Source: Candidatus Endomicrobiellum guadaloupense (GTDB taxonomy: Bacteria > Elusimicrobiota > Endomicrobiia > Endomicrobiales > Endomicrobiaceae). Taken from it: a DNA stretch of 37,037 nucleotides. How positions within the stretch are numbered: position 1 is the first letter of the stretch; the number at the start of each line of letters is the position of its first letter. The stretch lies in contig JAITJN010000029.1 in the NCBI GenBank assembly GCA_031278895.1, forward strand, positions 1 through 37,037. The letters are read 5' to 3'. A model generated the notes under the pieces. It was not told the DNA's origin. It saw nothing but the letters and a program-made list of their open reading frames with translations, and ran no database searches. Below are positions 10,521-36,850 of the stretch, piece by piece. A program made the position numbers and the translations under genes.

Positions 10521-13283
10521 TTAAAGTAGATATGAAATCCTGAGCAACCCGACTAACCCTTTCTTTTTCCCTGAATATCCTTCTATGCTTAATTCCATTC
10601 TAAAATTGCTAATCTCAGCTTTTACTCCAAATTCTCCGCTTTGAGTCCAACCACATAAATTCTCATGCTCTAGTTCAAATATAAAAGTTTTTGCTGCAAC
10701 TCTACCTTGTGTTTCATATTCAGCTCCTAGTCCTATAAATGGCGTTATGCTCCAACTTAAATTAAAAATGCTTCTTATTCCTAGTTTTAATCTACTTGAG
10801 TTAATTTGTCTAAAATTTATTATATCTCCGGTAACAAGTTTTGCTTTTTTAGACTCTTCGTGTACATATAACCATTTAAAATATCCTTCAAGGTCTAAAA
10901 TTCCTAAATTTCTTATATATCCGCAGCCAAGATGCCCGCCATAATATGTTCCATCCGTATTAAATTTTCCTTCTCCTATCATATCTCTATTTTTATAGCT
11001 TGAGTCAGTCTTTCCAATTTTTGCAGAACCGTCTAAATATACTTCACCTATTATTTTTCCAAAAGTATCTTTGGCATTCCACAATCCAAATCTTCCCAAA
11101 ATACCTATACCCATGTATTGAGGTTTACCTTTTCCTTCTGTTTTCCCAGATAAATGGCCAATAATTGTATCTTGATCATAGCTAGTTTTTACTGTATATT
11201 CTCCCTCCCCATGTTCCCAAAAAGCACCTAAAACCAACTTTTTATCAACAATAGGTACATACTCTTTAGCTATACCTGCTATAAAAGAAATACCCTTTAT
11301 TTCTAAAGTATTTTCACCATATTTTAAGTTTCCCCAAGACACAATGCCAAATGCACCAGCTTTACCATATGAATTCAAGTTTCCATCGTTATTTGAACTT
11401 ACAGTATCAACTGCTTCTCTTATTCCTTTATCTGCAAGCAAATCTAAAGATCTATTAACAAAGAGTATTTGAGCAGTTCCTTCTTCTAAACAGTTATTAG
11501 CTTTAGGATTGAGATCAAATTTTGAATCTTTAACTTCTAAATATAAAGATGTGTCTGTAGTTCTGATCAAAAAACTATAATCGTAAAGAAGAGTCGTACA
11601 AAAAGATCCATTCATACCTATATTAGTATTATTGTTGACAGGAGCATTATCTATCCCAGTGCCTGTACCTGAGCTTACTATTAAATAAATTTTGTCGCCA
11701 ACATTTAAAATAGGAATATCATCTTCATTTTGAAATTGTACTTTCACGGTAGTCCTACTCAGATTAATTGGTTTAGCAGGATCTTGATACATGCCTCCAG
11801 TACCAGCCTTCACATCTATAATCACATCATCCTTTTTTATATTACTTGGCAAATGAAAATTATAAATTTCAAAGTTATTGATACCATAAATTTGAATATT
11901 TTTTGCGTATATCTCAAGAGTATTTCCGCTAAAAACATTAGGAGTATCATCATGTTTTCCTCCTACCCATAAAATGCTATTTGTTGATAGACAAGCGCCT
12001 TCATGGATAATAAGAGTGTTATTTATAACATTACCAATACTCTTTCCAGAGTAATCGAAATAAATATTTCCTCCAATACTTGCATTATCATAGATACAAA
12101 TCACATTATCCCTAACTGTAACGTTTCCATTATCAGCAGTATGCTGAACACATATTACATGCCCTGCAACTCTTCCAAATATACTAATAACATTATCTGA
12201 AACTACGCCTGATCCCATAGAACAAGCGATTAAACTACCATTTACTACTCCAGAAATGTTCATAATTTCATTTTTAGAAGCTCCAACTCCAACTCTAGCC
12301 CCCTCTGCAACGACATCTACATGACCTGAGCCTGAAAGATTCAAAATATTATATGATGATGTACCACAACTAACGTGAGAACAAGTAACGCCTGTCATAC
12401 AATGCCCTGAAATATTAACTTCATTATTTATTGATATTCCTTCTGTGATATTAACACCCGCGACATGTCCATTTACGTAAGCACCTTCATGAACTCTCAC
12501 TGCGTTTTTTGTAGCTAATCCAGATGTAAGATAAGCAGAGCTAATATCACTACTAATATTTACATTCCCATATATATCCACAAAGTTACTTGTTGCTGTA
12601 CCAGCGCTTACATAGGCAGCGCATATATGACCCTCAAAACCCAAATTAGAGCTTACTATTCCACTTGTACTTACAATAATGCCATTACCAAAAGCTTGTC
12701 CGTTAGCAATATATGCACCAATAATTCTATTTGATACAGCGCTGCTTGATATTACAACAAGATTATTAATTGCTGTCACTTCTGATATCTCTGACTCGAT
12801 AGATACACCTCTAATATCACCTTCAGCAATACCAGAAATATTTACAGTATTTCTTTCAACTCGTCCTGCTCTCAACATCTGTACACCATAAACAGATCGA
12901 GAAACTCCAGAAACTAAAACAGTATTATGTGTGGCTGTTGCCCATATCGTAGTTGCAATACATACTCCATATATTGTGTCTGTAGCAGTTCCTTTTAAAA
13001 TTAAACTATTATAATTAGCATTATTTTGTGGGTATTGCCAATCAATATAAGACCCATAAGTTCTACTACTAACAGTTGCACCTTCTTCAACAGTTAATTT
13101 ATTGTTAATAGATGTATCCTCAAATGGCGCACTACCAGAATTATCTTGCCCATTTCCTGAGATTTCATAATTTATGACACTGCCTCTGTTAATGACAATA
13201 GACTTAGCAAAAACATCTGATGTGTAAAATGATATGATTGATATGAACAAAGTTATATAAAATATTGCATATATCTGCTTCAT
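10521..13283 (-). CDS. autotransporter: repetitive beta-helix-like passenger plus C-terminal beta-barrel
   Basis: 920 aa; signal sequence MKQIYAIFYITLFISIISFYTSDVFA; about 10 degenerate repeats of about 30 aa (GxAxxNxVxISG...); C-terminal barrel ending KKKGLVGLLRISYLL. Confidence 0.85.
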   Translation of the reverse strand: MKQIYAIFYITLFISIISFYTSDVFAKSIVINRGSVINYEISGNGQDNSGSAPFEDTSINNKLTVEEGATVSSRTYGSYIDWQYPQNNANYNSLILKGTATDTIYGVCIATTIWATATHNTVLVSGVSRSVYGVQMLRAGRVERNTVNISGIAEGDIRGVSIESEISEVTAINNLVVISSSAVSNRIIGAYIANGQAFGNGIIVSTSGIVSSNLGFEGHICAAYVSAGTATSNFVDIYGNVNISSDISSAYLTSGLATKNAVRVHEGAYVNGHVAGVNITEGISINNEVNISGHCMTGVTCSHVSCGTSSYNILNLSGSGHVDVVAEGARVGVGASKNEIMNISGVVNGSLIACSMGSGVVSDNVISIFGRVAGHVICVQHTADNGNVTVRDNVICIYDNASIGGNIYFDYSGKSIGNVINNTLIIHEGACLSTNSILWVGGKHDDTPNVFSGNTLEIYAKNIQIYGINNFEIYNFHLPSNIKKDDVIIDVKAGTGGMYQDPAKPINLSRTTVKVQFQNEDDIPILNVGDKIYLIVSSGTGTGIDNAPVNNNTNIGMNGSFCTTLLYDYSFLIRTTDTSLYLEVKDSKFDLNPKANNCLEEGTAQILFVNRSLDLLADKGIREAVDTVSSNNDGNLNSYGKAGAFGIVSWGNLKYGENTLEIKGISFIAGIAKEYVPIVDKKLVLGAFWEHGEGEYTVKTSYDQDTIIGHLSGKTEGKGKPQYMGIGILGRFGLWNAKDTFGKIIGEVYLDGSAKIGKTDSSYKNRDMIGEGKFNTDGTYYGGHLGCGYIRNLGILDLEGYFKWLYVHEESKKAKLVTGDIINFRQINSSRLKLGIRSIFNLSWSITPFIGLGAEYETQGRVAAKTFIFELEHENLCGWTQSGEFGVKAEISNFRMELSIEGYSGKKKGLVGLLRISYLL

Positions 13284-13311
13284 TAAAATACCTCATGATT
13301 TGAGAATGAAT

Positions 13312-16300
13312 TTAATTCAGAAATTCATTCTCTGATTTATTCCTCATTCCTTTTGTATAAAGGTATATATAAGGAACAAAACAAATAGAAAGACCTAATG
13401 CAAATGACAGACCTCCAACAACTGCTATTGCCATAGGCTGGTTTGTAGATCCTCCTCCACCAAAACCAATAGCAAGAGGAATAAGACCTGTAATGGTTGT
13501 AAGAGTAGTCATTGTAATAGGTCTTATATGATTAACTGTAACTTCAACAACATTCTTTTTTAAAGATAAAATATCTGGAGTAATATCACTCATTTTTTTC
13601 AATTCTTCTTCATACATAACATTAAACCTATCAATAAGCAAGATAGAAATATTAACAACGTTACCTATAAGCATTATAAAACCAAGCATTGAAATTGAAT
13701 TTATTGATTGACCTGTAATAAATAATACAACAGCAGCTCCCACAATACCTAAAGGAACAACAGTCATAACTAGAATTGGTTGAAACAAAGATTCAAATTC
13801 CGAAGCTAAAACCATGAAAATAATTATTACACCAAGTCCCAACGCAAACGAAACTTGAGTTAATGCTTCTTTCATGGCAAGCATTTCACCGGAAATAACG
13901 CAATGAACATCTTCATTATTGTACTTTGCATCAAGTATTGATTGTATTTCTTGAACAGCTTTTGTAAAGTTACCCTTAATGTTTGCAGAAAGCAGATATG
14001 TTCTTTCTCCTTCTATTCTCTTAATTGAAGGGAGTGTTTTTACAAAATTAGCTTGAGCTATTTGTTTTAATTGTATTGTTAATCCCCATGGAGAATAAGC
14101 AGTCATCTCCATAACTTTGCTAAGTTTGTCTCTATCTTCTGAACGCATTCTTACTCTTATATCCATTTCATCATCTTTTCTTTTAAGTTTTGTGGCAATA
14201 TAACCTTTAATTGCTGCCAAAGTCATAGCAGAAATTTCTTGAGTTGAAAGTCCAAATAGGGATGCTCTCTCTCTGTCTATTGTAAGCCTTAATTCAGGAA
14301 CTTCATCTGGAGGATCTAGCTTTATTCCATAAAACTGAGGCATTTTTTCCATAACAGCACGAATTTCATTAGATGCTTGTTTAAGTACAGATAAGTCTCT
14401 TCCTCTTACTTCTATTAATAAACCTGAAGCAGCGCCAACACCTGAACCAAATAAACCTTGCTGAGTCATAAATTCAGTCTCTAAACCTTTAATATTAAGC
14501 TTTCTTATTTCATTTGAAATATCTGCAACAAGTTCATCGGTAGATATACCTTCTTTGTGCAATCTTCCTACAATTCTTGCTTGATATGTTCCAAGAGATT
14601 CTATAGATGCAACACCAGAATTATCACCAGTTGAACCTACACTTACTGAAATGTCATTTATTTCAGGATATTTGGAAATCAATCTTTCTATTCTTCTTGT
14701 TGTTGCATCTGTAGATTCTAACGGAGTATCAGGAGGCATTATCAAGTTTAAAGTAAAACGTCTTTCATCAACTTTTGGCATAAAGGCCTTAGGTATAAAA
14801 GCAAGACAAACTACACCTACCATTGTATAAGCTAAAACAATCAACATTATTTTACTGATTTTATAATCTAAAACTTTTTTAAATATCGGAGTAAAATATT
14901 TATTTATTGCGTCCATCCCTGCTGTAACAGACTGTTTTGCTAAGTCAGCTGTAAGAGCAAGACGAGGAACAAGGAAAAGAGCAGTAAATATTGATGAAAT
15001 AAGAGCAAAAGAAATTGTAAGCGCTAACTGTTTAAAAAGTTGTCCTATCATGCCTGCAACAAAAACAAATGGTATAAAAATAGCAAGTGTTGTAAGAGTA
15101 GAACTCATAATAGGCGCAATCAAACTACTTGTAGCAGCATAAATTCTTTCTTTTTTAGGTATAGTTTTGAGTCTGTGAAACTGCATAAGAATATTCTCAA
15201 GAACCACGTTTGAGTTGTCAATAACCATTCCTATTCCAACAGTAAGACCACCCAAAGACATAGTATTTAGAGAAATATCTCCAAAATACATAAAACTTAA
15301 AGTACTACAAAGAGCTACAGGAATAGCTATGTTTATTATTGTAGATGCCATAAAGCTTTTCATAAAAAAATAAAGCAAGATAAATGAAAGTAATATTCCT
15401 TGTATCATGTTTGAGTATAAATTCTCAAGAGACTCTTTAATAAAATCAGACTGATCTAAGGTTATTTTTATATCAACATCTTCTGGCATTTTTTCTTTAA
15501 TATCTTTAAGTTTTTTCTGTACCCCTTTTGATAAATTTATTAAGTTTGAACCTGACTGCTGATAAATACCTACAGATATATTCTCGCTTCCATTGTAACG
15601 AGAATATCCTTTTCTGTCCCTAAGAGTCTCTTTCACTTGCGCAATATCTTTCAAAAATACTATTTTATCACCTGTTTCCTGCTCTTTATTTTTAACTCTT
15701 TTTGTGCTTAACACATGCTCTATGTTATTATCTACCTTTGAGAAAGAAAGGTTAGCTATATCATCAATTGTTTGAAATTCTCCAACAGTTTTAACTAAAT
15801 ATTCATGCTTTTCTTCTTTTATTGTTCCAGCGGGATAAGTGATGTTAGCATTTTCCAGAGAAGTAATAACTTCTGTTATTGAAACCTGATTAGCAAGAAG
15901 CCTTCCTTTATCTATTTCAACAAGTATTTCTTTCTCTTCTCCACCTCTAAGCTCAACTTTTGCAACACCTTCAATACGTTCAAGTTCATCTTTTATGTTT
16001 CTCTTTGACATGTATCTAAGCTCCGCCATTCTCATGTCAGAAGAATCACCGTTTTTATAGCTTACAGAAAGAAGCATAGCTTCAGTTTGAGTAGGATTGT
16101 ACTTCAAAACGACTGGTTCTAATGCTTCTCTTGGCAAGCTTTCTTTTATTAAATCTATCTTTTCACGTACATCCATTGCAGCAAAGTCCATGTTTGTTCC
16201 CCATCTAAACTCACATGTAACAATGGAAACACCTTCTTTTGAATTTGAAGAAACTCTTTTGATGTCTTTTACAGTACCAGCAGTTTCTTCAACCATTTTG

Positions 16301-16491
16301 CTTATAAGCTTTTCTGCTTCTTCAGGCCCTGCGCCATCATACCTTGTTACGATAGTTATTTGTGGATATTCCATAGATGGGAACAATTCTTGAGGGATTC
16401 TTGTATATGAGATTACTCCCAAAAGTCCTATTGACAAAAATAACATTATGGTTGTAACTGGTCTATCTACTGACAATCTCATTATGCTCAT
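13312..16491 (-). CDS. RND family efflux transporter permease (AcrB/HAE type), second of a pair
   Basis: 1059 aa; LSVDRPVTTIMLFLSIGLLGVISYTRIPQELFPSMEYPQITIVTRYDGAGPEEAEKLI; TM4 GMVIDNSNVVLENI. Confidence 0.97.
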   Translation of the reverse strand: MSIMRLSVDRPVTTIMLFLSIGLLGVISYTRIPQELFPSMEYPQITIVTRYDGAGPEEAEKLISKMVEETAGTVKDIKRVSSNSKEGVSIVTCEFRWGTNMDFAAMDVREKIDLIKESLPREALEPVVLKYNPTQTEAMLLSVSYKNGDSSDMRMAELRYMSKRNIKDELERIEGVAKVELRGGEEKEILVEIDKGRLLANQVSITEVITSLENANITYPAGTIKEEKHEYLVKTVGEFQTIDDIANLSFSKVDNNIEHVLSTKRVKNKEQETGDKIVFLKDIAQVKETLRDRKGYSRYNGSENISVGIYQQSGSNLINLSKGVQKKLKDIKEKMPEDVDIKITLDQSDFIKESLENLYSNMIQGILLSFILLYFFMKSFMASTIINIAIPVALCSTLSFMYFGDISLNTMSLGGLTVGIGMVIDNSNVVLENILMQFHRLKTIPKKERIYAATSSLIAPIMSSTLTTLAIFIPFVFVAGMIGQLFKQLALTISFALISSIFTALFLVPRLALTADLAKQSVTAGMDAINKYFTPIFKKVLDYKISKIMLIVLAYTMVGVVCLAFIPKAFMPKVDERRFTLNLIMPPDTPLESTDATTRRIERLISKYPEINDISVSVGSTGDNSGVASIESLGTYQARIVGRLHKEGISTDELVADISNEIRKLNIKGLETEFMTQQGLFGSGVGAASGLLIEVRGRDLSVLKQASNEIRAVMEKMPQFYGIKLDPPDEVPELRLTIDRERASLFGLSTQEISAMTLAAIKGYIATKLKRKDDEMDIRVRMRSEDRDKLSKVMEMTAYSPWGLTIQLKQIAQANFVKTLPSIKRIEGERTYLLSANIKGNFTKAVQEIQSILDAKYNNEDVHCVISGEMLAMKEALTQVSFALGLGVIIIFMVLASEFESLFQPILVMTVVPLGIVGAAVVLFITGQSINSISMLGFIMLIGNVVNISILLIDRFNVMYEEELKKMSDITPDILSLKKNVVEVTVNHIRPITMTTLTTITGLIPLAIGFGGGGSTNQPMAIAVVGGLSFALGLSICFVPYIYLYTKGMRNKSENEFLN

Positions 16492-16521
16492 TTTGCTCCC
16501 TCATAAATATTTAATTTATTG

Positions 16522-19500
16522 CTAAATTTTTATCTTAGGGGCATTAGGAATTTTTGTAGGAGAAGAATCTTCATTTTGGATAACAATTCTTGGAATTTTA
16601 AAAGTCTCTGACGTCAAAGTAGTTTTTGATTTTTTAGATCTAAACTTTCCAATATTTTTTAAAAGGTGTAAATTGTTTAACATTCCATGAAGGCTCTTTT
16701 TAGGATTCTCCATCATATAATAGGCCGTAGGGATGATTAAAAGAGTAAGTATTGTTCCAGTTAACGTGCCAAAAAGAACTGTAAGGGACATGGACCTCCA
16801 CATTGATGCCGCCGCGTCCCTACTTAAAACCATTGGAAGAAGACCAATAGTTTTCATAAGAAAAGTTATTAGTTCTGGACGAAGTCTTTCTTTACATGAC
16901 TCAAATATCACTCTTAAAATGTTTGTTCTTCCAACACGTCTTTGATTTATTTTATCAACAATAATAATTGATCCATAAACAATTGATCCAAATAAAATCA
17001 TTATCCCTATATATACGCCAAGACTTATAGGCTTTTTAAAAATCCAAAGAGAAAATGCTACACCAATTACGCTCAAAGGTAACGCAAACATTATGAGAAA
17101 TGGCTGTTTGTAAGATTCAAATATTGATGCTAAAACAAAGAAAATAAGAATGACAGTAAGTGCAATAGCCAACATAAAAGATCCTTGACTATTTACTGTT
17201 TTCTCATAATCACCAGATAAGGTAAATGAATAGTCTCTAGGGAAAGTAATCGTTTTAATAGCTGCAAATATACCTTTAGCTGCAGTCTTTAATCCTATTT
17301 TTTCTCTATTTGCTGTAAGCTGTATAAAACGTCTTTTATTTTTATGCCAAATCTCTTGAGTAGATTTTATTTCTTGAGCTCTAGCTACTTGTCCAACATA
17401 TACAACTTCTTTCCTAGTATTTATTATAGGTAAAAATAAAACATCTTGTACATTTCTCACACTGCCAGGACGAAGCCTTGCAACTGCTTCTATTTGTTCA
17501 CCGTCTTTCCTGAATTTAGTAGCAATAAGACCTCTTAGTTCTGCATGTAGCGTATTTCCAAAATAATATGCAGTGAGACCAAAATCCGCGAGCTTATTGT
17601 GGTCTACGAAAAGATTTATTTCAGGTTCGTCTTCCCTCATCCTTATTTTTACATCGTTTAGTCCTTTAACTTGCTGAAGTCTTCCAGAAGAAGAAAAAGC
17701 AAGCTGTTTTAAAGTATCATAATCTTGACCATAAAAGTCAACATACATTTCTTTAGAACCAGATGTATCAGAGTCTTGATAATACACAAAGGCAGGAGTA
17801 TAGTCTTCAAAATATTTTCTAAATTCCGCTTTAAACTTGTCAGCTTCTTTATATACCCTTACTTCAATAAAAGTGTGCAGCTTTTCAACTTTTGATGAAA
17901 CTCTATCAACATCTTCTTTAAAAGATAAGAGTTTCGTTTCCATTCTCTTTACTATCTCATTGGAAACTTCTATCCGTGTAGCAGGAGGAAATTGTATTCC
18001 TATTCTGAAGGTATTTGTATCACCTGCATCCATAAATTCAGAATCTCTTGTTCTTAAAATATGAACAGCAAATAAAAAAAGTAAAAATACAACAAGCCAT
18101 ACATAAGTTTGTCTTCTAAAAACAAATTTTAAAATTTTTCCATAGAAATATCTTATCTTCATGTACCAACCTTGGAACTCTAAGGAAAAATTGTTCTGCC
18201 ATCTATATATCTGAGGTGGAACAAATATCATAGTGCTTATAAGAGATGCAAGTAGAGCGAATGTGATTGTAAGACCAAACGGCATGTAGAGTTGTCTTAT
18301 TTCTGGCTCTAAAAATACAAGAGGAAGGAACACTACTATAGTCGTAACCGTAGATGCAAAAATAGGCTGCCAAAGTTCAGCAGTTCCATTTATAACTAAC
18401 TCTTCTTTTGTTTTGTAAGTTCCTCTATGGTGATGGAAAGATATATTTTCTATCACTACTATTGCATTATCCATAACGTTTGCCATACCCATAGCAAGAC
18501 CGCTTAATGTCATAACATTAAAAGTTTGTTTTGTAAAATACATTAAAAGCACAGATATTAAAAGACTTAAAGGAAGGGTTGTGACAACGATAATAACATT
18601 TCTTATATTCTTCATAAATAAAAATAAAATTCCAACAAGCAAAATTACTGCGACAACAAGTGCTTCGCATAGAGAATATATAGCTTTGTTTATGTAATCA
18701 GCATCATTTTTTACAACAGTCAAAGCAACTTCAGAATCTATTTCATGCCTTAATTTATTTATAACTCTAATAGATTCATTGGCCGTACTTATTGTATTTG
18801 CAGCAGTTTCCTTTTGAATATACATGGAAACAACAGATTGAATATTGAGTCTTGAAAAAGAGGTAGGCTCATAAAAAGAATCTCTTACTGTGGCAATATC
18901 GTTTATTCTAATTACAGAACCAGATGGAGTAATAGCTATACCAGTATTTGCAATTTCTTCAATATCTGTATATTCCCCACTAGCTCTTATCACATAGTTA
19001 TTATTTGCTTCATCTATATTCCCTGCTGATACAGAAATATTTGATAAATTAATTTTATTTATAACATCGAGAATTGGAAGATTGTATGCTATAAGCTTTG
19101 AATTATCTATATCTATTAAAAGCTTTCTTTCTCTTCCACCGCCAATCTCAACGTTAGCGACTCCAGAAACTCTCATAAGTTTTTCTTTAATACTTTTTTC
19201 AGCCACATTTCTAAGCTCTTCTGTAGAAAATTTATTAGAGCTTAAAGCTAATATAATTATTGGAGCGTCAGACTGTTCAAATTTAGCTATGATTGGTTTT
19301 TCTGTTTCTTTTGGCAGGAGATGTCTGACAAGTGCTAATTTCTCACGAATATCTACAACTATAAAATCAGTATCCACACCATGATGGAACTCCAGCATTA
19401 TATTAGATTCTGATTCCTTTGAAGAAGAAATCATTTCTTTAAGACCATTAAGCTCAGAAAAAACTTCTTCCAAAGGCTTTGTTACATATTTTTCTACTTC

Positions 19501-19671
19501 GGTTGACGCAATTCCTCCACGAAGTCTTGTAACAACACTTACTGTACCAGACTTAGAGTTAGGATTCAGTTCAACAGGAATCTTAACAACCATGATTGAC
19601 GAGAACATGATTAGCGCCATAACTATCATTAGAGTAGTTATTGGCTTTTTTATACCTATGTCAATAATCAT
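16522..19671 (-). CDS. RND family efflux transporter permease (AcrB/HAE type), first of a pair, more divergent
   Basis: 1049 aa; IDIGIKKPITTLMIVMALIMFSSIMVVKIPVELNPNSKSGTVSVVTRLRGGIASTEVEKYV; TM4 NVMDNAIVVIENI. Confidence 0.95.
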   Translation of the reverse strand: MIIDIGIKKPITTLMIVMALIMFSSIMVVKIPVELNPNSKSGTVSVVTRLRGGIASTEVEKYVTKPLEEVFSELNGLKEMISSSKESESNIMLEFHHGVDTDFIVVDIREKLALVRHLLPKETEKPIIAKFEQSDAPIIILALSSNKFSTEELRNVAEKSIKEKLMRVSGVANVEIGGGRERKLLIDIDNSKLIAYNLPILDVINKINLSNISVSAGNIDEANNNYVIRASGEYTDIEEIANTGIAITPSGSVIRINDIATVRDSFYEPTSFSRLNIQSVVSMYIQKETAANTISTANESIRVINKLRHEIDSEVALTVVKNDADYINKAIYSLCEALVVAVILLVGILFLFMKNIRNVIIVVTTLPLSLLISVLLMYFTKQTFNVMTLSGLAMGMANVMDNAIVVIENISFHHHRGTYKTKEELVINGTAELWQPIFASTVTTIVVFLPLVFLEPEIRQLYMPFGLTITFALLASLISTMIFVPPQIYRWQNNFSLEFQGWYMKIRYFYGKILKFVFRRQTYVWLVVFLLFLFAVHILRTRDSEFMDAGDTNTFRIGIQFPPATRIEVSNEIVKRMETKLLSFKEDVDRVSSKVEKLHTFIEVRVYKEADKFKAEFRKYFEDYTPAFVYYQDSDTSGSKEMYVDFYGQDYDTLKQLAFSSSGRLQQVKGLNDVKIRMREDEPEINLFVDHNKLADFGLTAYYFGNTLHAELRGLIATKFRKDGEQIEAVARLRPGSVRNVQDVLFLPIINTRKEVVYVGQVARAQEIKSTQEIWHKNKRRFIQLTANREKIGLKTAAKGIFAAIKTITFPRDYSFTLSGDYEKTVNSQGSFMLAIALTVILIFFVLASIFESYKQPFLIMFALPLSVIGVAFSLWIFKKPISLGVYIGIMILFGSIVYGSIIIVDKINQRRVGRTNILRVIFESCKERLRPELITFLMKTIGLLPMVLSRDAAASMWRSMSLTVLFGTLTGTILTLLIIPTAYYMMENPKKSLHGMLNNLHLLKNIGKFRSKKSKTTLTSETFKIPRIVIQNEDSSPTKIPNAPKIKI

Positions 19672-19686
19672 ACTTTAGAAACTATC

Positions 19687-20916
19687 CTAGTCTAGAGGTA
19701 TAGAAGTATCATCTTCTTTCAGTTCTTGAAACTTAACTTTTACACCATCTGAAAGTTGCCCTTGGGTTTCAATTACTAAAAGTTCTCCTAAATTAAGACC
19801 TGATAAAACTATAGTTTTTTCTCCAACCTTATCTCCAACTGCACAAGGTCTCATTTGTACAACGCCTTCACTTGGATTGGTATCTGGAACAACAACAGGA
19901 ATAAGAAATGTTGTATCATTTAAAGAAATAATACTGTCGCTAGGAACTAAAACAACATTATGAAACTCTCTTACAAAAATTGTTCCTCTTGCAAACATTC
20001 CAGAACGTAAAAGTCCATCTTTATTTTCTACATCAATTTTTACTGTTTCAGTCCTTGTTCTTTCTTTTACAACTGGAGCAATTTCAACAAGAGTTCCTTC
20101 AAATTCTCTACCAGGATATGAGTCACTATTAATAATTACTTTTTGTCCAGTCGACATTTTTAAAACATCTTTTTCAGGTATATCTACTTCAAAATTTGTA
20201 CCTTGATCACTTATAAACTTACAAACGACATCTTGTGAAGTGACATATTCTCCTGGCTTTATTATAATCTGTGCAAGAATTCCATCGCTTGGAGCAACAA
20301 GATTAGTCTTCTTTAGATTTAATTGTGCAAGATCAAGTTCAGACATGGCTGATTTTGCACGCAGTTCTGAAGCTTCTATCTCAAACTTAGCCTCAAGAAG
20401 TTTACTTTCTGCCAAAGCTTTCATCTTAAACATTTCTTCATACACTTTATATTTCTCTTTAGACGACAAATACGCAGAACGTTCACTTCTGTATCTAGAT
20501 TGAGCATAATCAACCTTAGTAACAGCATCTCTAGTATCTAAAGAACAAACAACCTGTCCTTCTGTAATCTTATCACCTTCTTTAAAATTATATTTCATAA
20601 GGTGGCCTTCTATTTGGAAGCGAAGATCATTTTCAACAGCGCCTTTTATTGATCCCATAACTGTATATTTTTCAGTAAAATCTTGTTTTTTTACCGCAGT
20701 TACTTTTACTTGAATTACCCCTTGTTCTACAACCTCTTCTTTAATCTTTTTGGCAAGCATAAAATATAACGAAACCAAAACAATAATAGAAATTAAGCTT
20801 ATCACAACTATACGAATCTTTTTTTTAAACTTTTGAGGAGATTTTTTATTTTCGTGTTCAATATAGAGAGAAATTTTGTCTATAACAAGATACAGATAGT
20901 ATTTGAGCTTTTCCAA
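19687..20916 (-). CDS. RND efflux periplasmic adaptor (membrane fusion protein)
   Basis: 409 aa; N-terminal TM anchor; KEGDKITEGQVVCSLDTRDAV, coiled-coil, LVAPSDGILAQIIIKPGEYV. Confidence 0.93.
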   Translation of the reverse strand: MEKLKYYLYLVIDKISLYIEHENKKSPQKFKKKIRIVVISLISIIVLVSLYFMLAKKIKEEVVEQGVIQVKVTAVKKQDFTEKYTVMGSIKGAVENDLRFQIEGHLMKYNFKEGDKITEGQVVCSLDTRDAVTKVDYAQSRYRSERSAYLSSKEKYKVYEEMFKMKALAESKLLEAKFEIEASELRAKSAMSELDLAQLNLKKTNLVAPSDGILAQIIIKPGEYVTSQDVVCKFISDQGTNFEVDIPEKDVLKMSTGQKVIINSDSYPGREFEGTLVEIAPVVKERTRTETVKIDVENKDGLLRSGMFARGTIFVREFHNVVLVPSDSIISLNDTTFLIPVVVPDTNPSEGVVQMRPCAVGDKVGEKTIVLSGLNLGELLVIETQGQLSDGVKVKFQELKEDDTSIPLD

Positions 20917-20931
20917 TTTTTGTTCCTCCTG

Positions 20932-22392
20932 TTATCTCAAAGGCATCAATATTAATCTTTCTATTTCCGTCACCGAGGAATAATTTTGATAAGTAGCTCT
21001 TGCATAAGCAGAAATAGATTCAGCGTATTTTAGTGTTTCTTCCATTAAGTTCACAGTTGAAACCTCATAAAGAGAGTTCTGTTTTTTTAGAAGAGCGATT
21101 TTTCTTTTTCTATAAGCTATTTCTTTCTTAAGAGTTCTTGCATTATTTAAAGAGTTTAGATAGTCATTGTATGATTTCTCAGTATCAAGTCTTTTGCTCT
21201 TAAGCGTCTCAACATAATCTGAATTTGCCTGATTAAAACCAACCTTACTTTCTTTTGAGTCAACAAAATAACCTAAGTCATCTAAAAGAGCAAATTTTAT
21301 ATCTTGAGTAACAGTGTCAACTCTTTTACTGGCATCTATAATTGAAGTAGGCTCCGTTCTTTCTTTTGAATAAGAAGCCTCTAAAGAATTTCCCCACAAT
21401 CCCCAAGAAAGTTTTCCCATTACATTCCATGACATTGAAAGCTGCAATGGCTGAGTTGTAAAAGCTTCTCCACTTTTACCATAGAATCCATCAACATAAA
21501 ATTTAGGAATAATTTTTGAACGATTTATCTTAATTTTCATATCAGCCATTTCTGATTGAATTTTAGCTGACTGTACATCTAAATTATTCGTTAAAACAAA
21601 TTTCAGCAAATCATCCAAAGAAAAAGAAATTTCAGGAACATCATCTGGAAGAAAATCTACTTCTTTCTCATTTATTTCAACTACATCTGAAACACCTATA
21701 ACACTTATAAGTTTCTTTATTGCAAAGTTCATATTTATACGAGCTGCTTCATACATATCATAGATTTTATCTTTAAAATGTTCTGCTTCTAAGAGATCAA
21801 GCTGCGAAATAGCTCTTGCCTTATATTCTTTCTGTACTTTTTTAAAAAGCTGCGAAACTATTTCATTTGCATCTGCCAAAGCGTTATATTCTTGTTTTAA
21901 AGTAATGTACTCATAATATGCAAGCTTGATTTTGGCAAAGAGCTCTTCACGAGTTTTTATATAGTTAAACCTTGCGACTGTAACCATCATAGATTCATAT
22001 TTATAAGTACCTTTAGCTCTATAGCCTTCGTATATAGATTGAGATGCTTTTATTCCGTAAGATTCAGAATTGTACTCATAGTCCTCAAACACACCACTAC
22101 CTGAATTTCTTTCAGCCATAGCAGTTGTTCCTTTAGATCTTGTATGTTGAAGCGTAACTTGAGGGAAAAATGATCTTGCAGCACGGGTAGCTCTAGATTC
22201 GGCAAGTTGAATCTGTTCGTGTGTTATAGCCAATTTAGGATCGCGGGATTCACCAATCTTTATACACCTTGCTAGAAAAGCATCGCTAGAGGAGTAAACC
22301 TCTACACATAAAAACAAACAAATAATTATTATTGTTAAAACAAAAGTATATCCTCTAAGAATTTCTCTTTCTTTTAACAAATTTGTCTCCAT
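20932..22392 (-). CDS. TolC family outer membrane efflux protein
   Basis: 486 aa; signal sequence; QIQLAESRATRAARSFFPQVTLQHTRSKG, repeated coiled-coil outer-membrane efflux protein organisation. Confidence 0.9.
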   Translation of the reverse strand: METNLLKEREILRGYTFVLTIIIICLFLCVEVYSSSDAFLARCIKIGESRDPKLAITHEQIQLAESRATRAARSFFPQVTLQHTRSKGTTAMAERNSGSGVFEDYEYNSESYGIKASQSIYEGYRAKGTYKYESMMVTVARFNYIKTREELFAKIKLAYYEYITLKQEYNALADANEIVSQLFKKVQKEYKARAISQLDLLEAEHFKDKIYDMYEAARINMNFAIKKLISVIGVSDVVEINEKEVDFLPDDVPEISFSLDDLLKFVLTNNLDVQSAKIQSEMADMKIKINRSKIIPKFYVDGFYGKSGEAFTTQPLQLSMSWNVMGKLSWGLWGNSLEASYSKERTEPTSIIDASKRVDTVTQDIKFALLDDLGYFVDSKESKVGFNQANSDYVETLKSKRLDTEKSYNDYLNSLNNARTLKKEIAYRKRKIALLKKQNSLYEVSTVNLMEETLKYAESISAYARATYQNYSSVTEIERLILMPLR

Positions 22393-34722: not shown

Positions 34723-35997
34723 TTATAACACCTCCTTTACAAAACGAATATTTGCCGCATTTGCGTGAGCATCTAAACCTTCTAATAAAGCAAAAGACGA
34801 AATGTCATCTCTAAACTCTGATAGCACGTTTTTTGGATAATAACTGTAAGAAGTTCTTTTTACAAAATCATACACGCCTAAAGGCGAAGCAAACTTTGCA
34901 GTACCAGATGTTGGCAAGACGTGATTAGTACCGCTCATATAATCGCCAAGTACTTCTGGAGAATTTTCTCCTAAAAATACTGCCCCGGCATTTTTAACTT
35001 TAGCAAGCATTTCTAAAGGATTTTGTGTCATTATTTCTAAATGTTCAGGAGCGATGTTATCTGATATTTCAAAAGCTTCGTCAATAGATTTTGCTATGAT
35101 ACACATTCCATTTTTTTCTAATGCATTTTTTGCTATCTCTTTACGTTTTAGTTTTGGAAGCTGTAACTTTAACTCCTTTTCAACTTCTTTGTACAGATCT
35201 AAGTCAGTTGTAATCAAAATACTTTCTGACATTTCATCATGTTCAGCCTGACTTAGAAGATCTGCTGCGATATAGGCTGGTTTAGCATTAGAGTCTGCAA
35301 TTATTAAAATCTCCGAAGGACCTGCTATCATATCTATATCTACTACTCCAAACAATAATTTTTTTGCACTAGCCACATAAGCATTTCCCGGACCTACTAT
35401 TTTGTCTACTTTTGTAATATTGTTGGTCCCATATGCAGCTACTGCAACAGATTGTACGCCTCCTACTTTGTAAATCTCAGTTATGCCACATATTGCTGCA
35501 GCTGCTAAAATAAAATCCTTAATTTTTCCATCAGATTTTGCAGGTGTAAACATGACAATATCTTTAACACCTGCGAGTTTTGCTGGAACAGCATTCATCA
35601 ATACAGTCGAAGGATATGCTGCTGTACCACCAGGCACATAAATAGCCACACGTTCTAGCGGTCTTATAACTTGTCCCATAATAACACCATTTTTCTTATA
35701 TATAGAATATCCTTTCTGCACTTGCCTTTTGTGAAAACACTCAATCTGTGACTTTGCTTTTTTTAAAATACGCATTGCATTTTTATTAATTATCTTCAAT
35801 GCATTTTCTATTTCTTCATTTGTCACCCTTATAGTTTTACTATTAAAACCATCAAACTTTTTTGCATAAGACAAAACCGCTTCGTCACCGAATTGCCGTA
35901 CATCATCAATTATCTTTCTCACAGAAATTTCTACCTCAATATCCATCTCATTTTTTGGAACAAACCCTTTTGTATTATATTCGACAAGTTTTAACAT
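34723..35997 (-). CDS. hisD: histidinol dehydrogenase
   Basis: RVAIYVPGGTAAYPSTVLMNAVPAKLAG, VDKIVGPGNAYVASAKKLLFGVVDIDMIAGPSEILIIAD, SGTNHVLPTSGTAKF. Confidence 0.98.
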   Translation of the reverse strand: MLKLVEYNTKGFVPKNEMDIEVEISVRKIIDDVRQFGDEAVLSYAKKFDGFNSKTIRVTNEEIENALKIINKNAMRILKKAKSQIECFHKRQVQKGYSIYKKNGVIMGQVIRPLERVAIYVPGGTAAYPSTVLMNAVPAKLAGVKDIVMFTPAKSDGKIKDFILAAAAICGITEIYKVGGVQSVAVAAYGTNNITKVDKIVGPGNAYVASAKKLLFGVVDIDMIAGPSEILIIADSNAKPAYIAADLLSQAEHDEMSESILITTDLDLYKEVEKELKLQLPKLKRKEIAKNALEKNGMCIIAKSIDEAFEISDNIAPEHLEIMTQNPLEMLAKVKNAGAVFLGENSPEVLGDYMSGTNHVLPTSGTAKFASPLGVYDFVKRTSYSYYPKNVLSEFRDDISSFALLEGLDAHANAANIRFVKEVL

Positions 35998-36593
35998 AGC
36001 AGTCTCCCAAGCTTTTCTATAAAATTGTCTATTGCATTTAAGCCTATGCTCTTAGGATTAATTAGAAGCAATGTACTTATGTCACAAATCTTTTCTATTA
36101 CTTCTAACCCGTTGGCTTTTAATGTATTGCCACTTTGAACAATATCAACTATTCCATCGGCTATTTTTAAAATAGGCGCAAGCTCTACTGAACCTTCTAT
36201 TTTTACAATCTTTGGATACTTATTTTTCTTTGCAAAAAATTTCCTTGTGACATTCGGATATTTTGAAGCTATAACTTTGGCTTCTTTATAATTTGAAAAT
36301 CCCGCTAAAGCAAAATGACACTTGCTTATCTTTAAATCCAACAATTCATTATAAATCTCAGTATCATTCTCAATAATTGCATCTTTACCAACAACTGCCA
36401 AATCTACAATATTTAGATCTATAAATTTCAAAGTATCATTAGATTTAGAAAATATAAACTCTATATTATCTTTTGATTTAACAAGCAAACTTCTTCCTTT
36501 GTTACAGATTGATGTGCTGTCAAACCCTGCTTTTCTAAGTAATCCAATAAATTCTTCTTCAATACGTCCTTTAGTAACTGCAACTCTAAGCAT
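35991..36593 (-). CDS. hisG: ATP phosphoribosyltransferase, short form
   Basis: 200 aa; LRVAVTKGRIEEEFIGLLRKAGFD, DIVQSGNTLKANGLEVIEKI; short-form length without the C-terminal regulatory domain. Confidence 0.94.
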   Translation of the reverse strand: MLRVAVTKGRIEEEFIGLLRKAGFDSTSICNKGRSLLVKSKDNIEFIFSKSNDTLKFIDLNIVDLAVVGKDAIIENDTEIYNELLDLKISKCHFALAGFSNYKEAKVIASKYPNVTRKFFAKKNKYPKIVKIEGSVELAPILKIADGIVDIVQSGNTLKANGLEVIEKICDISTLLLINPKSIGLNAIDNFIEKLGRLLC

Positions 36594-36620
36594 TATAATT
36601 ATCTCCTGTAATTTTCAAAA

Positions 36621-36655
36621 TAAAAAAACCGTGTAGTTTAAAACCCACACAGCTT
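36621..36655 (-). terminator. his leader intrinsic terminator (attenuator)
   Basis: Minus-strand RNA aagcUGUGUGGguuuuaaaCUACACGGuuuuuuuauu: 8-bp core stem (GU pairs included) plus U7 tract, ending about 30 nt before hisG. Confidence 0.8.
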
Positions 36656-36672
36656 ATAAAACCTCTATAGCA

Positions 36673-36707
36673 ATGTAGGCGCAAACAAACGACACTCACG
36701 CCTACAT
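36673..36707 (-). promoter_or_regulatory. his leader hairpin 1:2 (pause or anti-antiterminator candidate)
   Basis: Perfect 9-bp stem ATGTAGGCG (plus 36699-36707 on minus) / CGCCTACAT (plus 36673-36681). The 3' arm GCCTACAT can also pair with terminator 5' arm GTGTGGGT. Confidence 0.65.
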
Positions 36708-36719
36708 GAATTCCATGTT

Positions 36720-36779
36720 TTAGCGCAAATGTCGCCCATTATGATGATGTAATTTTGCAAACATTGCCATGTTAAACAT
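36720..36779 (-). CDS. hisL: histidine operon leader peptide MFNMAMFAKLHHHNGRHLR
   Basis: 19-codon ORF with SD AAGGAAAG; codons 11-13 and 17 are His (CAT CAT CAT ... CAT). It lies between a strong promoter and a terminator upstream of hisG, in a different frame from the listed ORF 36665-36871. Confidence 0.82.
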   Translation of the reverse strand: MFNMAMFAKLHHHNGRHLR

Positions 36780-36821
36780 CTAAATCTTTCCTTAAATAAA
36801 ATAAAACTTACGCTGCACAAA

Positions 36822-36850
36822 AGTATAGTCATTATTTCAAAATTTGTCAA
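36822..36850 (-). promoter_or_regulatory. his operon promoter (TTGACA-N17-TATACT)
   Basis: Minus strand: TTGACA (plus 36845-36850), 17 bp, TATACT (plus 36822-36827), about 45 bp upstream of the leader peptide start. Confidence 0.85.

What the first reader, a model, noticed from the sequence alone, without database searches (positions are those of the whole stretch)
36594..36850. Complete histidine-operon attenuator with a His-rich leader peptide, missed by ORF calling
Seen in sequence on the minus strand, in order: promoter TTGACA-N17-TATACT; SD AAGGAAAG; 19-aa ORF MFNMAMFAKLHHHNGRHLR* with His codons at 11, 12, 13 and 17; a hairpin with a perfect 9-bp stem (ATGTAGGCG/CGCCTACAT); an intrinsic terminator (CTGTGTGG/CUACACGG + U7); then hisG. 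Ribosome-mediated his attenuation is well known from enteric bacteria (hisL). An instance in this lineage, if Elusimicrobiota as suspected, would extend it to a distant phylum. I do not know whether it has been described there.
Basis: partly seen in the sequence, partly recalled or inferred. Interest (0 to 1): 0.88.

Follow-up and report, generated by a model that had tools for sequence, protein, structure and literature searches.

The report
Histidine operon leader-peptide attenuator in Endomicrobium
Upstream of the histidine-making genes of a termite-gut Endomicrobium lies a tiny His-rich leader gene followed by mutually exclusive RNA hairpins, so a ribosome that runs short of histidine probably switches the genes on; the mechanism is known from other bacteria but does not seem to have been reported in this phylum.

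Summary
The end of the ORF (segment B) pairs with C, D with E and A with D, which gives the six-segment logic of the enteric his leader. Masking the RNA with a ribosome at the His run gives B:C + D:E (antitermination). At the stop codon it gives C:D + E:F (termination). The leader occurs in exactly 5 of 342 Elusimicrobiota genomes, all Endomicrobium, always before a Bacillota-like short-form hisG. The promoter, the reading frame and the distance from the His run to segment B are kept. RF00514 does not match, no TrpR/HisR-family repressor was found in the genus, and native long-form hisG genes in the genus lack the element. Such attenuators were already known in Proteobacteria and, by prediction, in three Firmicutes lineages, so this is a new member of a known kind and, as far as I could search, the first in its phylum. 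In these five genomes hisG is short-form yet hisZ, its usual partner, was not found. No transcript or expression data exist.

The parts
36822..36850 (-). promoter TTGACA-N17-TATACT
   Evidence: the same hexamers and 17-nt spacing are readable in all four relatives
36786..36793 (-). Shine-Dalgarno AAGGAAAG of the leader ORF
   Evidence: kept in L031, weaker G-rich sequence in L032-L034
36720..36779 (-). leader peptide ORF MFNMAMFAKLHHHNGRHLR*
   Evidence: same frame in five species, the only length change being a 6-nt in-frame insertion in L032
36741..36749 (-). control codons His11-His13
   Evidence: at -9 to -7 from the last sense codon in all five (L033 reads His-Arg-His)
36755..36770 (-). 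segment A (can pair with D when no ribosome is present)
   Evidence: 93% of cells paired, 22-44% when slid
36722..36737 (-). segment B: last five codons of the ORF plus the first stop base; pairs with C
   Evidence: GCGACATTTGCGCTAAA invariant in five species; B:C 97.5% of cells paired
36687..36707 (-). segment C: pairs with B (stalled ribosome) or D (ribosome at stop)
36673..36685 (-). segment D: pairs with C (attenuator hairpin) or, through its 3' part and the following bases, E (antiterminator) or A
36643..36680 (-). antiterminator hairpin D:E
   Evidence: 16 pairs, 96% of cells paired; D:E probability about 0.87-0.99 when the His-stalled transcript ends just past E
36623..36655 (-). intrinsic terminator E:F with U run
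   Evidence: 11 pairs, 98% of cells paired
35991..36593 (-). hisG, short form, first gene of the controlled operon
   Evidence: NCBIfam TIGR00070
31479..35997 (-). hisD, hisB, hisH, hisF, hisIE, hisA downstream in the same operon
   Evidence: NCBIfam matches

Best explanation
This is a ribosome-mediated transcription attenuator of the his operon. With enough charged tRNA-His, the ribosome runs to the stop codon and covers segment B, so C pairs with D, E pairs with F, and transcription stops at the U run before hisG. When histidine is short, the ribosome halts at His11-13. That leaves B free to pair with C, so D is free to pair with E, the terminator cannot form, and the operon is transcribed. 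With no ribosome on the leader, A is predicted to close over D outside B:C, leaving E and F to terminate. Shown: the elements, their conservation in five species and the mutual exclusivity of the pairings. Inferred: transcription from the promoter, translation of the ORF, the response to histidine, and the A:D state.
For: The anatomy is complete and directly upstream of hisG. The frame is kept across five species and the HHH run is at a fixed distance from B, even where L032 has 6 extra bases upstream of it. B and D are nearly invariant. The helices hold 93-98% of cells against about 22-55% when slid. Of 35 distinct changes in paired columns, 24 keep every pairing, against 17.7 expected for random changes (p about 0.017). 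With a ribosome at the His run and polymerase just past E, D:E forms with probability 0.87-0.99 in all five; with the ribosome at stop, the complete leader forms C:D and E:F in all five. PF01371, the family of TrpR and HisR, finds nothing in the genus. No T-box was found there.
Against: No transcript, ribosome or expression data. Only five sequences, two of them close, so covariation is weak: two pairs changed on both sides, no more than in shuffles. In L033 and L034, at equilibrium on the complete leader, the terminator wins even with a stalled ribosome, so switching there must be decided while the RNA is being made. Three or four His codons are fewer than the seven of E. coli hisL (PMC10989985).
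Confidence: 0.93

Rival explanations
1. The terminator and hairpin are a constitutive or protein-controlled leader (for example a TrpR-family HisR or an RNA-binding protein), and the His-rich ORF is incidental.
For: In the phylum, Elusimicrobium minutum has a HisR repressor before its his operon (PMC9413887).
Against: No PF01371 protein in 43 genomes of the genus. The ORF is kept in frame with the His run at a fixed distance from segment B in five species. Alternative pairings involve the ORF itself.
Confidence: 0.04
2. It is a divergent T-box that reads uncharged tRNA-His directly.
For: T-boxes exist in this genus: one stands before trpE in G027 (L072, 82 bits, below the gathering score of 93, E = 8.7e-17).
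Against: No T-box match in the leader in the Rfam scans. The transcribed leader is only about 190-200 nt, with no AGGGUGGNACCGCG element.
Confidence: 0.01
3. The leader is a relic: once functional, now without regulatory effect in these reduced endosymbiont genomes.
For: Endomicrobia endosymbionts lose amino-acid pathways (PMC11257099). L033 has lost one His codon. No hisZ was found although hisG is short-form.
Against: Promoter, frame and stems are kept while the stretch between promoter and SD has diverged.
Confidence: 0.06

Closest known systems
his operon leader (hisL) of E. coli / Salmonella, Rfam RF00514
   Same: His-run leader peptide, leader of similar length (about 180 nt in E. coli, PMC10989985), an extra hairpin between leader ORF and terminator (described for Salmonella in PMC1183508), and B:C + D:E versus C:D + E:F switching (my knowledge of the Salmonella model).
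   Different: No RF00514 match at E up to 10. Three clustered His codons plus one, not seven in a row. B lies inside the last codons of the ORF. The no-translation state is predicted as A:D rather than A:B.
His leader-peptide attenuators predicted in Firmicutes (B. cereus group, Peptostreptococcaceae/Lutispora, Erysipelotrichales; PMC9413887) and before hisZ/hisS* of bacilli (PMC2965389)
   Same: Three to five His codons in a short ORF, attenuator and terminator hairpins with an alternative antiterminator, and RF00514 fails there too.
   Different: Other phylum. Their sequences were not at hand, so homology could not be tested. Here hisG, not hisZ, is the first gene.
RF04312 'trpB ncRNA motif'
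   Same: Two hairpins, the second a terminator; best sub-threshold hit, 33 bits.
   Different: Below its gathering score of 59. It also matches unrelated hairpins in the genus, so it says little.

Membership tests
ribosome-mediated amino-acid attenuator (his type) | short leader ORF enriched in the codon of the end product | tested here: met
   4 His of 19 codons, HHH run; five species; 0.03 expected by chance with SD in 37 kb
ribosome-mediated amino-acid attenuator (his type) | intrinsic terminator between leader ORF and first structural gene | tested here: met
   36655-36626 + U run; 98% of cells paired in five species
ribosome-mediated amino-acid attenuator (his type) | mutually exclusive antiterminator whose formation depends on ribosome position | tested here: met
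   (equilibrium folding with ribosome masks; in L033 and L034 only on the growing transcript)
ribosome-mediated amino-acid attenuator (his type) | controls the biosynthetic operon of that amino acid | tested here: met
   it lies directly upstream of hisG-D-B-H-F-IE-A; control itself is inferred
ribosome-mediated amino-acid attenuator (his type) | histidine- and translation-dependent termination in the cell | not testable with these tools
   needs a reporter or RNA-seq
Rfam RF00514 His_leader | covariance model score at or above gathering | tested here: not met
   no match (the latter listing every match up to E = 10)
Rfam RF00230 T-box | covariance model match | tested here: not met
HisR (TrpR-family) control | PF01371 protein in the genome | tested here: not met
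   0 of 43 genomes of the genus

The most novel reading that the evidence does not exclude
In this Endomicrobium lineage a horizontally acquired his operon no longer has HisZ, the usual activating and histidine-sensing partner of short-form HisG, and a leader-peptide attenuator that arose or was gained in the symbiont is now its main histidine control.
Probability: 0.25. Interest if true: 0.6.

Novelty: new member of a known kind. Interest (0 to 1): 0.42.

Why it matters
It extends His leader-peptide attenuation to Elusimicrobiota, a deep lineage where, as far as I could search, only a HisR repressor had been reported for his genes. It shows the mechanism attached to one acquired operon and absent from native his genes of the same genus, a clean case for asking whether attenuators travel with operons or arise anew. 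It also fits a pattern of mixed RNA controls, since the same genus carries a T-box before trpE.

Tried and rejected
Sub-threshold RF04312 hits elsewhere in the genus were inspected: cold-shock-gene terminators, a thiG leader and other unrelated hairpins. Weak covariance-model hits in another family of the phylum (G078, G105, G111, G124, G132, G145) and three-mismatch hits to segment B in G061 and G062 are chance. An A:B hairpin as in Salmonella was looked for: it forms well only in the window (P 0.68), at about 0.45 or less elsewhere, and is not consistent across the five. Leaders before native long-form hisG in the genus and phylum were looked for: no convincing His-run ORF. The second short-type hisG (L007, L008, L013) has no His-run leader. 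The Clostridial relatives have hisZ directly upstream of hisG and no His-rich leader before hisZ.

Full report
Observation. The operon reads hisG-D-B-H-F-IE-A. A short ORF with HHH and an SD-like site is expected 0.03 times in 37 kb of first-order Markov sequence. The leader folds at -55.4 kcal/mol, z = -5.4.

Where it comes from. HisG is 79-93% identical to four Endomicrobium genomes (L031-L034 = G036, G010, G015, G027), then 40-51% to uncultured Bacillota (Ruminiclostridium/Ruminococcus MAGs). Most other hits in the genus and phylum are long-form HisG of about 290 aa, 25-33% identical. In a tree the five sequences lie on the short-form side with the Bacillota, apart from the native Elusimicrobiota long forms, which include other Endomicrobium (100/99 support, but long branches and pattern-limited sampling). 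So the operon was most likely acquired horizontally. The donor is not identified.

Conservation of the leader. All five genomes carry the promoter with identical hexamers and 17-nt spacing and a leader peptide: MFNMAMFAKLHHHNGRHLR, MFNIAMFAKLHHHNERHLR, MFKKAMLTILQQHHHNERHLR, MFNKVMFTVLHRHDERHLR, MFNKAMFARLHHHYERHLR. The stretch between promoter and SD is not conserved. The His run stays at -9 to -7 from the last sense codon, even where L032 has two extra codons. The last codons (GCGACATTTGCGC TAA) are invariant. A pattern for them finds only these five leaders among 43 genomes of the genus, plus two chance sites. A covariance model built from them finds only these five among 342 genomes of the phylum; weaker hits are unrelated hairpins.

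The switch. D also pairs with E (antiterminator, 16 bp). E also pairs with F (terminator, 11 bp). B:C + D:E hold 96% of cells, C:D + E:F 98%, and A:D 93%, against 22-55% when slid. Many pairs vary on one side only, through G-U. Only two pairs change on both sides, and the shuffle controls are not exceeded, so covariation alone proves little with five sequences. Changes in paired columns nevertheless keep their pairings more often than random changes (24 of 35 against 17.7, p about 0.017).

Ribosome masks. Taking RNA from about 12 nt downstream of the A-site codon: with the ribosome at the first His codons and polymerase just past E, D:E has probability about 0.98 in all five and B:C is the dominant partner of B. 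With the ribosome at stop, the complete leader forms C:D and E:F in all five. In the window itself the stalled state stays antiterminated even on the complete leader (D:E 0.76-0.94). In L033 and L034 the complete leader at equilibrium prefers the terminator, so there the decision must be made during transcription. Without a ribosome, A closes on D around B:C and E:F forms in four of five (L032 is mixed).

Other controls. RF00514 does not match. No T-box was found in the his leaders. PF01371 (TrpR/HisR) finds nothing in 43 genomes of the genus, although Elusimicrobium minutum has HisR (PMC9413887). Native hisG genes in the genus show no convincing His-run leader.

Prior knowledge. His attenuation is textbook in enteric bacteria. 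Predicted His leader-peptide attenuators exist in three Firmicutes lineages, where RF00514 also fails (PMC9413887), and before hisZ/hisS* in bacilli (PMC2965389, whose authors consider both convergent origin and transfer). The extra hairpin of the Salmonella his leader (PMC1183508) corresponds to C:D here. The comparative genome paper on Endomicrobia (PMC11257099) notes that histidine synthesis is patchy in the endosymbiont genus and does not mention attenuation. Searches of the held library found no report of such a leader in Elusimicrobiota; subscription journals are mostly not covered.

An oddity beside it. Short-form HisG normally works with HisZ (my knowledge), and the Clostridial relatives have hisZ directly upstream. 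None of the five genomes shows a HisZ: searches find only HisS. The genomes are 53-94% complete, so absence from one alone would be weak; absence in all five and from the operon is stronger. If real, the usual histidine-feedback partner is missing, which would make the attenuator the main known histidine control. This is inference.

Verdict. A real and complete attenuator, well supported by comparative sequence, untested by experiment, and a new member of a known kind in a phylum where I found no earlier report.

Noticed in passing
window 35991-36593 and genomes G000, G036, G010, G015, G027: Short-form hisG (200 aa) with no detectable hisZ in any of the five genomes; the only related protein found is HisS.
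   Followed up: partly
L072:2969-3233 (minus), G027: T-box leader (82 bits, just under the gathering score of 93, E = 8.7e-17) directly upstream of trpE in the close relative Candidatus Endomicrobiellum devescovinae.
   Followed up: partly
L071, region upstream of trpE in G010: Sequence resembling a decayed version of the same T-box (AAGATTGGCTGGCATTATGGACAAATTTTAATGTCC), with no Rfam match.
   Followed up: no
L007, L008, L013 (G033, G012, G009): A second, different short-type HisG (235 aa) in three other Endomicrobium genomes, followed by hisD in L007, so the genus appears to hold three kinds of hisG.
   Followed up: partly
L058 around 1430-1640 (G001): Sequence resembling a TPP riboswitch (CTGAGA...ACCATTTGAACCTGACATGGATAATACCGTCAGGGA) and a terminator before a thiG-like gene, seen by eye only.
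   Followed up: no
window 10521-22392 (minus): Tandem pair of AcrB-type efflux pump genes with an outer-membrane efflux protein gene, and a 920-aa ORF at 10521-13283 without a Pfam match at E <= 1e-8.
   Followed up: no
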